A stretch of 35,695 nt of DNA from Bacteroidales bacterium (GTDB lineage: Bacteria > Bacteroidota > Bacteroidia > Bacteroidales > ML635J-15), in assembly GCA_031284905.1 (NCBI GenBank), contig JAITXI010000012.1, forward strand, positions 1-35,695. The letters run 5' to 3'. The position numbers and the translations under genes were made by a program. The first letter of the stretch is position 1. Each line of letters opens with the position of its first letter. Below are positions 1,274 through 15,859 of this stretch, one piece after another. The notes under the pieces were generated by a model. That model was not told the origin of the DNA, made no database searches, and worked only from the letters and a program-made list of their open reading frames with translations.

Positions 1274-1373
1274 TTTTTGTGTAAAATTACAATAAAAAAA
1301 CTAATTTCACTAAATTAATGCAAAGATAATAAACTTTTTCATTACAAGTACAAAAAATATTTACAGTTAACAC

Positions 1374-1571
1374 TTATGATTTTAATATTTCCGAAATTTC
1401 TTTTTCATTTAAACCTGTAATCTTTTCAATTTCTGACATTTTAAATCCCATTTTTATCAGATTTTTGGCTATTTCTATTTTTTCTTCTGCTTTCCCTTTT
1501 TCTGTACCAATAGCTAAACCTTTTGCTTCACCTTTTGCAAAATTTTCAACTGCACTAACTTCAATAGCATA
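1374..1571 (-). pseudogene. Orphan C-terminal fragment of an Rpn / PD-(D/E)XK nuclease
   Basis: In one frame this stretch reads YAIEVSAVENFAKGEAKGLA, then a Lys/Glu-rich linker, then a short helix-turn-helix-like tail (IEKITGLNEKEISEILKS) and a natural stop at 1374-1376. An in-frame TAA at 1572-1574 immediately precedes it, so the nuclease core is missing. Bases 1512-1571 match 15083-15142 of the intact Rpn gene with one mismatch in 60, while the tail (1374-1511) is clearly homologous but diverged. It is either a deletion remnant or a spare C-terminal cassette. An internal ATG could produce a short peptide, but I see no promoter box for it. Confidence 0.85.
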
Positions 1572-1676: not shown

Positions 1677-1684
1677 TAACTTTG
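1677..1684 (+). promoter_or_regulatory. Bacteroidetes -7 box upstream of argF
   Basis: TAACTTTG matches the TAnnTTTG consensus of the Bacteroidetes primary sigma factor and ends 14 bases before the argF ATG, which predicts a very short 5' leader. No good TTTG -33 element stands about 20 bases upstream. Confidence 0.65.
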
Positions 1685-1698
1685 TAAAAAAAAATAAT

Positions 1699-2700
1699 AT
1701 GGCATTTAATTTAAAAAACAGAAATTTCTTAAAATTATTAGATTTCACACCAAAAGAAATAGAACATTTATTAAAACTTGCATTAGAACTAAAAAGAGCT
1801 AAATATGCAGGAACAGAACAACCAACATTAAAAGGTAAAAACATAGTTTTATTGTTTGAAAAAGACTCAACCCGCACACGTTGTGCTTTTGAAGTAGCAG
1901 CTTTAGACCAAGGTGCTCATGTTACATATTTGGGACCGGCCGGCTCACAAATGGGTAAAAAAGAATCAATGAAAGATACGGCAAGAGTTTTGGGTAGAAT
2001 GTATGATGGCATCGAATATCGTGGTTATTCTCAAGAAATTGTTGAAACTTTGGCTGAATATGCAGGAGTACCGGTTTGGAACGGTTTAACAACCGAATTT
2101 CACCCGACTCAAATTTTAGCAGATTTTTTGACTATGATGGAACATATTGATAAGCCTTTAAGCAAAGTAACTTTCTGTTATTTTGGAGATGCTCGTAATA
2201 ATATGGGAAATTCTTTAATGGTTGGAGCTGCAAAAATGGGAATGGATTTCAGAGCTTGTGCCCCAAAATCCTTGTGGCCAAATGAAGAATTAGTTGCAAA
2301 ATGTAGCGAAATTGCAAAAGAAACAGGTGCTAAAATTACTTTGACAGAGAGTATTGATGAAGGAGCAAAAGGTTGCGATTTCTTATATACAGACGTTTGG
2401 GTTTCGATGGGTGAACCAACAGAAGTTTGGGAACAACGTATCAAACTTTTAAGTCCTTACCAAATTAATATGAATGTTGTTAAGAAAACAGGTAATCTAA
2501 ATGTAAAATTTTTACATTGTTTACCGGCTTTTCACAATAGAGAAACAATTGTAGGAGAAGATATTTATCAAAAATTTGGTTTGGAATCAATGGAAGTTTC
2601 CGAAGATGTTTTTGAATCTCCAATGTCGATAGTTTTTGATGAAGCAGAAAACAGACTTCACACAATCAAAGCTGTAATGGTGGCAACACTTGGAGCATAA
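1699..2700 (+). CDS. argF: Ornithine carbamoyltransferase
   Basis: A 333-residue enzyme that joins carbamoyl phosphate and ornithine to make citrulline, in arginine synthesis or, run in reverse, arginine catabolism. The carbamoyl-phosphate loop STRTR is at residues 57-61, [13 protein letters not shown] supplies the HPTQ motif, and HCLP is at 273-276 with the catalytic cysteine. Sequence and length fit the E. coli ArgI / catabolic ArcB branch (DQGA, VTYLGP and GSQMGKKES segments) and not the shorter succinyl- or acetylornithine variants of some Bacteroidetes. No other arginine genes flank it, so context does not separate argF from arcB. Base composition is slightly richer in G+C than the neighbours, as expected for a conserved, well-expressed gene. 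Confidence 0.96.
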
Positions 2701-2751
2701 AATTATACTTTTTATAAAATAAGAGAATAAGTTTAATTTCTTGTTTCTCTT

Positions 2752-2811
2752 TTTATTTTTAGCTGTAAAGTTTCATAACGTTGATGACGGACTTTTACAG
2801 CTAAAAATAAA
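2752..2811 (+). terminator. Long near-perfect hairpin downstream of argF
   Basis: Left arm 2752-2771 and right arm 2791-2811 are complementary over 20 pairs with one bulged A and enclose a 19-base loop. The core is AGCTGTAAA paired with TTTACAGCT, extended on the outside by AT pairs. It begins 51 bases after the argF stop and probably ends that transcript. The remaining spacer to hldA (2812-2999) is AT-rich, with a 10-bp inverted repeat (AATAATTACA paired with TGTAATTATT near 2960-2995) and no gene. Confidence 0.6.
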
Positions 2812-2999
2812 CATATATATGTAGTTTACTGAAATTTTTAATTTTTCTAACTTAAAAATTAATCACTGATTATCAGCTACTTACAATTTACAAAAAACGA
2901 AAGATAATTTAAATTAGTTTTATAAATACCTATATTCCAATACATTATACAAACATAAATAATTACAGTTTTTTTTATTATTTTTTGTAATTATTTTTT

Positions 3000-3007
3000 T
3001 AATTTTG
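3000..3007 (+). promoter_or_regulatory. Bacteroidetes -7 box upstream of hldA
   Basis: TAATTTTG fits TAnnTTTG and lies 23 bases before the ATG at 3031. A TTTG is present upstream but only 12 bases away, which is too close for a standard -33 element. Confidence 0.55.
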
Positions 3008-3030
3008 TAAAATAAAAATAGTCAAATAAA

Positions 3031-4038
3031 ATGGAAATTTCAAAAGATAAAATAACTAAATATGTTTCAGCCTTCAAAACAAAAAAAATAATGGTAATTG
3101 GAGATGTTATGATTGATTCTTACAAATTTGGAGATACAAATCGTATATCACCAGAAGCACCAGTCCAAGTTGTGTTGATTAATAATGAAAAAAACAAATT
3201 GGGTGGAGCTGCAAATGTTGCTTTAAATATTAATTCTTTAGGTGCAGAAGCAATTTTATGTTCTGTAATTGGGAATGATTATAATTCAAATATCTTCAAA
3301 ATATTACTTAAAGAAAAAGATTTAATAGACGAAGGAATTATTAGCGATAATGAAAGAACTACGACAATAAAAACGAGAATTTTTTCACGAGGACAACAAC
3401 TCCTTCGTATTGATGAAGAAATTGAAAATAATTTGAGTAATAATATCGAAAATAAACTTTTTGAAAAAATTTGGGAAATTATTAAAAATAAAAAAATTGA
3501 TTTAATAATTTTTGAAGATTATGATAAAGGAGTTTTGTCGGAAAATTTTATTTCAAAAATTATTAAATTAGCAAAAAAAAATGAAATTTTAACTACTGTT
3601 GACCCCAAAATAAAAAATTTTCATTCATATAAAGGCGTTGATTTGTTTAAACCAAATTTTGGTGAATTTTGTAATGGAATGAATGAAAAAAAAATTTCAG
3701 TTGAAAGTAATAATTTCAAAGCGATTACTAAAAAATTCCTTACAGAAAATTTGATAAAGAATTTATTAATAACTTTATCTGAAAATGGAATTTATATCAC
3801 AAATAAGAATTTGGATTACAAATTTCCGGCTGTTTTAAGAAATATTGTTGATGTTTCAGGAGCCGGTGACACTGTGATAAGTATTGCAAGTTTATTATTA
3901 ACATTAGACATTCCGATTGATGAGATTGCATACATCGCTAATATTGCCGGCGGAATAGTTTGTGAAAAAATTGGCGTTGAAGCCATTACGGATAAAGAAC
4001 TTTTAGAAAATTTTAAAGACAAGAATTTGAATGAATAA
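3031..4038 (+). CDS. hldA: D-glycero-beta-D-manno-heptose-7-phosphate kinase (PfkB family)
   Basis: A 335-residue sugar kinase of the RfaE/HldE kinase-domain type, which phosphorylates heptose 7-phosphate at C1 on the way to ADP-heptose for lipopolysaccharide core. Diagnostic stretches are VIGDVMIDSYKFGDTNRISP at the N terminus, the substrate loop NKLGGAANVALN near residues 56-67, SRGQQLLRIDEE, and the PfkB signature SGAGDT with the catalytic Asp at residue 280. The C-terminal cytidylyltransferase domain of bifunctional HldE is absent, so a separate HldE2-type enzyme is expected elsewhere. It stands alone with its own promoter and ends beside a collapsed receptor gene on the other strand. Confidence 0.92.
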   Translation: MEISKDKITKYVSAFKTKKIMVIGDVMIDSYKFGDTNRISPEAPVQVVLINNEKNKLGGAANVALNINSLGAEAILCSVIGNDYNSNIFKILLKEKDLIDEGIISDNERTTTIKTRIFSRGQQLLRIDEEIENNLSNNIENKLFEKIWEIIKNKKIDLIIFEDYDKGVLSENFISKIIKLAKKNEILTTVDPKIKNFHSYKGVDLFKPNFGEFCNGMNEKKISVESNNFKAITKKFLTENLIKNLLITLSENGIYITNKNLDYKFPAVLRNIVDVSGAGDTVISIASLLLTLDIPIDEIAYIANIAGGIVCEKIGVEAITDKELLENFKDKNLNE

Positions 4039-14938: not shown

Positions 14939-15859
14939 TTATTTATTATGATTTAATATTTCTGAAATCTTATTTTTGCTCAAACCTGTAAATTCTGCTA
15001 TTTCTGATATAGAAAATCCTTTTTTGTTCAAATTTTGTGTTATTTCAGCGTTTCGTTTCTCTATTCCTTTCTCCATCCCTTCAGCTAAACCTTTTGCTTC
15101 ACCTTTTGCAAAATTTTCAACTGCACTAAATTCAATAGCATAATCCATTGTGTTTTTCAAATCTCGGTAAACTTTTAAACTGTCTTCATAATCAATTATT
15201 TCTGCTTTCGAAAACTTTAATATTTCGGCTGTAGCAAAAAGTCTTTCAAAAACTCGTTCTTGTAATCGTGCAGGACGAGCTGCCAATAGTGGTAAATTTT
15301 TTAATACATACATCCATTTGTCAAAATGACTCTCTAACTCTTCTTCTTTTTTGTTGAATTTTGGTAATTCTAAATAAATAAATGTTAATTTGTCGTAGAA
15401 AACTTTTTTCCGTTTTATGTCCATTAATTGTACTTCTATTTGAGAAAACGGATCCGAATCATTTTTGTCTTCTTCAAAAACAAAATCTAAAATTCCTACC
15501 AAATATACTGCTTTCAGTTCAAAATCCCAATCTCCGGCTTTCGCTTGCTCCTGAATAGGAAAAGATGAATAATAAACACTTCGGTCTTTGAAATATTTTT
15601 GTTTAGCTCGCTGCATTTCTACTATGAATTTTTCACCTCTTTCATTTTGACAGTAAATATCGAAAATTGCTTTTCTATCCCATTCGCTACGTCTTAATTG
15701 TTCATTCTTAAGATACTGAATATCAGTAATTTTTCCTTGATCTTTTATTAATTCATTAAGAAAATCCAATAAAATGTCTTTGTTTACTTCCGAGCCAAAT
15801 AATTTTTTGAAGCCAAAATCGGTAAATGGGTTTATATATTTTTCTGTTAATGAAGTCAT
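14939..15859 (-). CDS. Rpn-family PD-(D/E)XK nuclease / putative transposase
   Basis: About 306 residues from the ATG complementary to 15857-15859 (MTSLTEKYINPFTDFGFKKL). An in-frame start 15 codons upstream is excluded because the promoter box lies inside that extension. The PD-(D/E)XK core is visible in AIFDIYCQNERGEKFIVEMQ (Asp then EMQ). A Gly/Lys-rich linker (GEAKGLAEGMEKGIEKR) follows, then a C-terminal helix-turn-helix-like tail (SISEIAEFTGLSKNKISEIL). Members were first called transposases (RecA-independent recombination-promoting nucleases, Rpn); later work in E. coli describes them as anti-phage toxins whose C-terminal part is also made alone as an antitoxin. Fragments of the same family lie at 1374-1571 and 29917-29965. 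Confidence 0.92.
   Translation of the reverse strand: MTSLTEKYINPFTDFGFKKLFGSEVNKDILLDFLNELIKDQGKITDIQYLKNEQLRRSEWDRKAIFDIYCQNERGEKFIVEMQRAKQKYFKDRSVYYSSFPIQEQAKAGDWDFELKAVYLVGILDFVFEEDKNDSDPFSQIEVQLMDIKRKKVFYDKLTFIYLELPKFNKKEEELESHFDKWMYVLKNLPLLAARPARLQERVFERLFATAEILKFSKAEIIDYEDSLKVYRDLKNTMDYAIEFSAVENFAKGEAKGLAEGMEKGIEKRNAEITQNLNKKGFSISEIAEFTGLSKNKISEILNHNK

What the first reader, a model, noticed from the sequence alone, without database searches (positions are those of the whole stretch)
1374..1571. Orphan Rpn C-terminal cassette: near-identical hinge, diverged tail
Bases 1512-1571 match 15083-15142 of the intact Rpn gene with one mismatch in 60, but from there to the stop the two copies are only distantly similar. 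The shared 60 bp encode the hinge just before the variable C-terminal domain. Rpn proteins in enterobacteria have a hypervariable C-terminal domain that is also made alone as an antitoxin (published for E. coli RpnL/RpnS). A free-standing alternative C terminus behind a conserved hinge is what one expects from a stored cassette that can replace the tail by homologous recombination, a domain-swapping system. A simpler alternative is a dead paralogue.
Basis: partly seen in the sequence, partly recalled or inferred. Interest (0 to 1): 0.7.

Follow-up and report, generated by a model that had tools for sequence, protein, structure and literature searches.

The report
Leftover Rpn tail beside shared hinge
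A 198-base piece of DNA is the cut-off tail of an Rpn nuclease gene, a family with one member reported to protect E. coli against certain phages; its first 60 bases match 59 of 60 bases of the intact Rpn gene in the same window while the rest differs, and it is likely a leftover of recombination between Rpn copies at a shared hinge, predicted to be silent because no start codon precedes codon 41 of its 65.

Summary
In detail: 59 of 60 hinge bases match the intact Rpn gene A (14939-15859, minus strand), then 89 of 132 aligned bases. Among same-residue codons, 0 of 19 differ in the hinge and 7 of 22 in the tail. Hinge and tail thus appear to have different histories, pointing to recombination at the hinge. 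The fragment has no nuclease body, a stop codon just upstream and no in-frame start before codon 41. None of the other 23 argF loci read in the genus has an Rpn match beside it; in 393 genomes of the order no tail outside its own genome exceeds 49% identity. I read it as a relic, not a working cassette.

The wider idea has support. Among 25 close Rpn pairs, 13 show a significant break, all at A-residues 218-285; but only 3 show the synonymous jump expected of swapping, most tails diverging by amino-acid replacement. One Chlorobiaceae gene shares its last 57 bases (56 identical) with a neighbour of unlike body. In E. coli, rpnE and free-standing ypaA share the hinge, and the four single-gene strains compared carry the ypaA tail on the rpnE body. 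Free-standing Rpn tails are published, so the fragment is a new member of a known kind.

The parts
1374..1571 (-). orphan C-terminal Rpn remnant (65 codons plus TAA stop), no body and no start codon before codon 41
   Evidence: match E=1.8e-13 to a tail profile built without the fragment
1512..1571 (-). hinge shared with the intact gene A, 59 of 60 bases
1374..1511 (-). diverged tail (HTH-like) and stop; 89 of 132 aligned bases identical to A's tail
14939..15859 (-). intact Rpn gene A (306 aa, PDDEXK_2 body plus tail)
   Evidence: PF12784 E=2.4e-73; TIGR01784 E=4.4e-30
15083..15142 (-). hinge of gene A (residues 240-259), inside a predicted continuous helix, residues 218-279
   Evidence: AlphaFold2 model, mean pLDDT 65.3 overall, block means 79-90 over residues 251-300
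14942..15082 (-). tail of gene A, RpnS-like; family profile matches the solved RpnA small-form chain 7th0
   Evidence: E=0.0052, profile positions 260-298; the top-scoring chain is 8vd6, 'CAP repeat', E=4e-5, with no stretch passing on its own
1677..1684 (+). TAnnTTTG-type promoter-like motif before argF (motif recalled, not scored by a tool)
   Evidence: sequence
1321..1328 (-). TAnnTTTG-type promoter-like motif before the PorP/SprF gene (motif recalled, not scored by a tool)
   Evidence: sequence
1699..2700 (+). neighbour argF-type carbamoyltransferase gene, divergent from the fragment
   Evidence: PF00185 and PF02729
251..1273 (-). neighbour PorP/SprF-type gene, same strand as the fragment
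   Evidence: PF11751 E=7e-42

Best explanation
The 198-bp piece is the 3' end of an Rpn nuclease gene without nuclease body or start codon ahead of the tail, and it is likely a relic left by recombination between Rpn paralogues at the hinge, predicted to make no protein. Shown: 59 of 60 hinge bases shared with gene A, a tail about as diverged as that of a separate paralogue, a stop codon directly upstream, and argF-type and PorP/SprF-type genes on either side. Inferred: an Rpn copy that once stood here, or a free-standing RpnS-type tail derived from one, exchanged its hinge with gene A by gene conversion or crossover; its 5' part, including any start, was then lost. The hinge is a plausible exchange point because it lies in a predicted helix of four-residue repeats that Rpn copies share, while the distal tail diverges quickly. 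In some other genomes similar tail-only units stand as intact-looking genes with an ATG right behind a full-length Rpn gene.
For: Hinge 59/60 vs tail 89/132; synonymous differences 0 of 19 same-residue hinge codons vs 7 of 22 tail codons, p=0.0098, the tail value being near the A-B paralogue level (51 of 200 body codons, 16 of 45 tail codons). A and B differ in the same hinge (38 of 48 bases). The fragment's tail without the hinge is no closer to A's tail (24 of 45 residues) than to those of two metagenomic Rpn proteins (23 of 42, 22 of 41). No in-frame ATG/GTG/TTG before codon 41 and a TAA just upstream. An Rpn or fragment match beside argF occurs at 1 of 24 argF loci, the window's own (argF found in 23 of 26 genus genomes, flanks up to 1.5 kb). 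Own contigs 175 and 179 share exactly their first 119 bases and then differ in tail, and contigs 113 and 60 share exactly 119 bases of the N-terminal part, as expected if an assembly graph broke on a shared body with two tails. Other tail pieces without an early start, away from contig ends, occur in G104 (L358, L360, L361) and G067 (L357), so tail relics recur. Tail-only units with an ATG ahead of the tail: G023 and G013 of the same genus, G067, G093.
Against: The synonymous contrast rests on 41 codons (p=0.0098). The parent full-length gene with this tail was not found, so the exchange is inferred from similarity alone. Codon choice or short-range constraint in the hinge cannot be wholly excluded. 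The G104 pieces share no near-identical stretch with the three G104 full-length genes in hand (not all its copies were fetched), so the shared-hinge feature is not general among tail relics. A start-less orphan is not by itself dead: orphan CDI tails generally lack start signals, and one that was tested worked when fused to a full-length gene (PMC3150448, passages). No expression data exist for this organism here.
Confidence: 0.65

Rival explanations
1. It is a stored tail cassette: gene A could take up this tail by gene conversion through the 60-bp hinge and so switch the specificity of its nuclease and antitoxin.
For: Long shared hinge; same strand as A; four E. coli single-gene strains carry the ypaA tail on the rpnE body; a Chlorobiaceae gene shares its last 57 bp, 56 of 57, with a neighbour of different body; orphan CDI tails also generally lack starts and are proposed donors.
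Against: Single orphan, 13,511 bp away with argF and other genes between, which a crossover would delete; no close version of this tail on a full-length gene in 393 genomes; most tail divergence in close pairs is replacement, not exchange.
Confidence: 0.13
2. It is a plain dead paralogue with no recombination in its history: hinge identity is due to constraint or chance, and the tail simply evolves fast.
For: Tails evolve fast by replacement in 17 of 25 close pairs; no start codon; other tail relics without a shared hinge exist.
Against: After death hinge and tail should decay alike; synonymous changes 0/19 vs 7/22; the A-B hinge is not conserved.
Confidence: 0.13
3. It is a living free-standing RpnS-type antitoxin made from a non-standard start or from the short internal ATG.
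For: Free-standing tails with ATG exist in the same genus (G023, G013); E. coli YpaA is reported as made (PMC10327210); reading frame still open for 65 codons.
Against: First in-frame start is codon 41, leaving 25 residues, shorter than the RpnA small form solved as chain 7th0, 49 residues; the ATG at A-residue 262 reads ACA here.
Confidence: 0.06
4. Assembly error joined an Rpn tail to this place.
For: Other Rpn genes of this genome are broken at contig ends.
Against: The shared stretch is 60 bp, shorter than the 119-base overlap that this assembly appears to use, and no near-identical second copy of the tail is in the assembly.
Confidence: 0.03

Closest known systems
E. coli rpnE with free-standing ypaA (RpnES), K-12
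   Same: Free-standing Rpn tail with a hinge near-identical to that of a full-length Rpn (124 aligned bases with 3 mismatches and one 12-bp gap) followed by a diverged distal tail.
   Different: ypaA keeps an ATG in the same context as rpnE's internal one, lies 12 bp behind rpnE and is reported as made (PMC10327210); the window piece has no such start and lies 13.5 kb from gene A. E. coli Rpn bodies are of another Pfam family (PF04754, recalled and in the abstract listing).
Free-standing tail behind Rpn in the same genus (G023, contig 3)
   Same: Tail-only unit whose hinge DNA is identical to its neighbour Rpn for 23 bp and then diverges.
   Different: Has an ATG 3 bp after the Rpn stop and looks intact.
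Orphan cdiA-CT / rhs-CT modules (PMC3150448, passages seen)
   Same: C-terminal pieces, generally without start signals, that share a conserved hinge (VENN) with full-length genes and carry a different tail.
   Different: CDI orphans often come in arrays behind the main gene, paired with immunity genes; here one lone piece without partner, in a different protein family.
Type I restriction enzymes EcoR124I/II with four-residue (TAEL) repeats
   Same: Four-residue repeats whose number changes specificity; named as a parallel in PMC10327210.
   Different: Different family and function; no membership claimed.

Membership tests
Rpn / PDDEXK_2 nuclease (PF12784, TIGR01784) | nuclease body over curated cut-off, gene A | tested here: met
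   247.1 bits vs 27.4; TIGR01784 105.4 vs 52.1.
Rpn / PDDEXK_2 nuclease (PF12784, TIGR01784) | nuclease body present in the fragment | tested here: not met
   Own-genome PF12784 search lists no match at 1374-1571; fragment aligns to A-residues 238-303 only.
RpnS-type free-standing tail | tail homologous to RpnS three-helix unit | tested here: met
   Family profile vs 7th0, E=0.0052; fragment vs a tail profile built without it, E=1.8e-13. The value used a profile that contains the fragment.
RpnS-type free-standing tail | own start codon ahead of the tail | tested here: not met
   First in-frame ATG/GTG/TTG is codon 41 of 65.
RpnS-type free-standing tail | expressed and blocks its RpnL | not testable with these tools
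   Needs expression and toxicity assays.
Orphan tail module as in CDI/Rhs | conserved hinge shared with a full-length gene, different tail | tested here: met
   59/60 then 89/132.
Orphan tail module as in CDI/Rhs | same tail found on a full-length gene elsewhere | tested here: not met
   393 genomes of the order, best 49% aa outside the own genome; among 291 tails (A and B and some duplicates included) best 23 of 42 residues, A 24 of 45.
Orphan tail module as in CDI/Rhs | array behind the main gene with a cognate immunity gene | tested here: not met
   Lone piece between argF-type and PorP/SprF-type genes.

The most novel reading that the evidence does not exclude
Rpn genes from Bacteroidota and Chlorobi to E. 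coli are tail-switching genes: free-standing tails that share the repeat hinge are donors and landing points, one recombination at the hinge changes nuclease and antitoxin together, and the window fragment is a tail set aside by such a switch. In E. coli the rpnE body is found in 5371 of 5426 genomes, its K-12 distal tail in 3101 and the ypaA distal tail in 5363, so by subtraction about 2,260 genomes would carry the ypaA tail on rpnE.
Probability: 0.3. Interest if true: 0.7.

Novelty: new member of a known kind. Interest (0 to 1): 0.45.

Why it matters
In the studied E. coli Rpn proteins the tail is part of the toxin and, made alone, its antitoxin (PMC10327210), so exchanging a tail at the hinge would change both in one step and keep them matched. 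That would be one way for these phage-defence genes to diversify without poisoning the cell. The published work mentions recombination only as a possible origin of the downstream tail copies; the E. coli rpnE/ypaA locus, where both forms are common, makes this directly testable in laboratory strains.

Tried and rejected
Searching small proteins with the 65-residue fragment: one candidate, none at E 0.01 or better. A full-length query bearing the fragment's tail was not built; instead the fragment itself was searched in 61 relatives and 393 genomes of the order. Synteny with the closest relative G011: its argF is preceded by an amino-acid-kinase-type gene and that genome has no Rpn match, so it gives an argF locus without Rpn but no clean empty site. 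Contig-cut tails (own contigs 175, 179, 201; G444 contigs 15 and 19; pieces in G040, G063, G085, G090, G093, G106) were not counted as orphans. Tail pieces behind other domains (PIN and RadC in G104; G003 and G020, unscanned or without a Pfam match) were set aside; G018 (L374), G085 (L364, L365) and the longer G067 piece (L357) were read but not classified. The 50-genome profile search and the 11-genome tail search list only the best rows, so they give no totals of orphan tails. From the rows I chose 80 regions in 26 genomes and left out copies in further multi-copy genomes; with four G000 genes this gave 90 full-length genes in 27 genomes and 129 within-genome pairs, of which the 25 pairs (15 genomes) with body identity of at least 0.85 were analysed. 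Pairs within one genome are not independent, and the break test ignored the first and last 15 codons. Against the swap reading: 12 of the 25 pairs show no break at the 1-in-2000 level, only 3 of 25 show a synonymous jump (p<0.002), and tail exceeded body identity by at least 0.08 in 3 of 129 pairs, all involving one gene, one of them not significant (p=0.073). The AlphaFold2 model has low confidence in the body, so no fold search was run on it.

Full report
What is there. On the minus strand, bases 1374-1571 encode 65 codons and a stop that match only the end of an Rpn protein. The first 60 bases agree with the intact Rpn gene A (14939-15859) at 59 positions; the remaining 132 aligned sites agree at 89. 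Gene A is a full PDDEXK_2/Rpn protein. The fragment follows an in-frame TAA and has no ATG, GTG or TTG before codon 41. It lies between an argF-type gene and a PorP/SprF-type gene.

Is it more than chance? A codon shuffle reached the near-identical segment in 7 of 20,000 trials. Among codons for the same residue, 0 of 19 differ in the hinge and 7 of 22 in the tail (p=0.0098). The sister gene B differs from A in this same hinge and lacks 12 bp there, so the hinge is not frozen. Without the hinge, the fragment's tail is no closer to A's tail (24 of 45 residues) than to two metagenomic Rpn proteins (23 of 42 and 22 of 41) among 291 tails compared. Hinge and tail of the fragment therefore appear to have different histories, which I read as recombination at the hinge; that step is inferred.

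This genome. Full-length Rpn genes: A, B (contig 64), contig 129 and contig 106; the other listed Rpn pieces lie at contig starts. Contigs 175 and 179 begin with exactly the same 119 bases and then carry two different tails; contigs 113 and 60 begin with exactly 119 shared bases of an Rpn N-terminal part. This is what an assembly graph with 119-base overlaps would give for two genes with a shared body, different tails and different surroundings; the middle is not in the assembly, so it is an inference. A similar break with 55 shared bases is seen in G444.

Relatives at the site. argF was found in 23 of 26 genus genomes; of 24 argF loci, with up to 1.5 kb on each side where the contig allows, only the window's own has an Rpn or fragment match. 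The closest, G011 (argF 91% identical), has no Rpn match at all. The fragment's tail was sought in 61 relatives (11 with a match at 0.01, the own genome included) and in 393 genomes of the order (14 with a match at 1e-6, the own genome included); outside the own genome the best is 49% identical. The donor or parent is therefore not found.

Do tails swap in general? From chosen multi-copy genomes I compared 90 full-length genes in 27 genomes as 129 within-genome pairs. Body identity exceeds tail identity by at least 0.08 in 99 of 129 pairs. Of 25 pairs with body identity of at least 0.85 (15 genomes), 13 show a single break reached in at most 1 of 2000 shuffles, at A-residues 218 to 285, 12 of the 13 at 235 or later; the hinge is 240-259, and the first and last 15 codons were not tested. 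Only 3 of 25 show a synonymous jump (G101, an Arcicella rosea tandem pair, 13 of 229 vs 16 of 30; G082; G063), while 17 of 25 show a replacement excess in the tail and 8 of 25 a higher replacement-to-synonymous ratio there. So fast amino-acid change is the commoner process and exchange the rarer one. A direct case of tail sharing: in G071, a Chlorobiaceae genome, two neighbouring PDDEXK_2 genes whose bodies are 39% identical share their last 57 bp, stop included, at 56 positions.

Free-standing tails and relics. Tail-only units with an ATG ahead of the tail, directly behind a full-length Rpn, occur in G023 and G013 of the same genus, in G067 (behind a PF04754 gene) and in G093. In G023 the hinge DNA is identical for 23 bp and then diverges; in G067 hinge and tail are near-identical with 24 extra bases; in G013 and G093 no hinge identity was found. 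In G137 the first Rpn residues are fused in frame to a tail. Short tail pieces away from contig ends, whose first start lies inside the tail, occur in G104 (three) and G067 (one); the G104 pieces share no near-identical stretch with the three G104 Rpn genes in hand. So tail relics recur, but the shared hinge is not a general feature of them.

E. coli. In K-12, rpnE and ypaA share 124 aligned bases at the hinge with 3 mismatches and one 12-bp gap, then diverge. The rpnE body is in 5371 of 5426 genomes, rpnE's K-12 distal tail in 3101, the ypaA distal tail in 5363. Of 40 rows spread over the ranking, 16 list only rpnE over a matched stretch of 941-989 bp, 19 list a second feature, 4 have two places (one of them, hit 37, was read and is two-gene), and one is broken by an insertion sequence. 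Four of the 16 single-gene rows were compared (hits 14, 21, 24, 29): 72 to 75 of the last 75 bases match ypaA and 49 to 51 match K-12 rpnE, on an rpnE body. The preprint PMC10327210 (text parts 1 to 3 of 4 read; [quoted passage not shown] the word 'swap' does not occur in its main text. Which form is ancestral was not tested. Four paper searches were run; I make no wider claim that tail exchange is unpublished.

Mechanism. The family profile matches the solved RpnA small form 7th0 at the tail (E=0.0052); a 'CAP repeat' chain, 8vd6, scores higher (E=4e-5) without a stretch passing on its own. The AlphaFold2 model puts the hinge inside one helix, residues 218-279, followed by two short helices; confidence is good only in the tail. 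The published work places the four-residue repeats in the first helix of RpnS, the dimer contact, and shows that adding a repeat breaks matching between long and small forms. A shared repeat helix is thus a plausible exchange point. For the window piece the likely history is exchange of the hinge with gene A and loss of the 5' part; it is predicted to be silent.

Verdict. The fragment itself is a new member of a known kind.

Noticed in passing
L252 (G071 contig 97), genes at 1347-2393 and 2579-3496: Two neighbouring PDDEXK_2 genes with unlike bodies (39% nt) share their last 57 bp at 56 positions: a tail shared between clades.
   Followed up: yes
L359:678-989 and L369:716-1210 (G104): Rpn-type tails behind a PIN domain (PF01850) and behind a RadC domain (PF04002), so the tail looks like a portable module.
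   Followed up: partly
L295:1423-1644 (G137 contig 178): The first residues of an Rpn protein fused in frame to an Rpn tail, a 74-residue open frame that looks like an internal deletion.
   Followed up: no
G000 contigs 113, 60, 175, 179 (starts): Contig pairs that share exactly 119 bases inside an Rpn gene and then differ, hinting at two copies with one body and two tails.
   Followed up: partly
window 14939-15859 versus contig 64 copy: Genes A and B are 71 of 72 identical just before the hinge although 86% identical over the body; the longest exact run (50 bp) was reached in 513 of 20,000 shuffles.
   Followed up: partly
L358, L360, L361 (G104): Three short tail pieces without an early start, away from contig ends, in a genome with many Rpn copies; two of them resemble each other and the PIN-fused tail L359.
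   Followed up: partly
NC_000913 2357816-2358001 (L376:7817-8002): ypaA is annotated as a pseudogene in the K-12 record although the preprint reports its protein.
   Followed up: no
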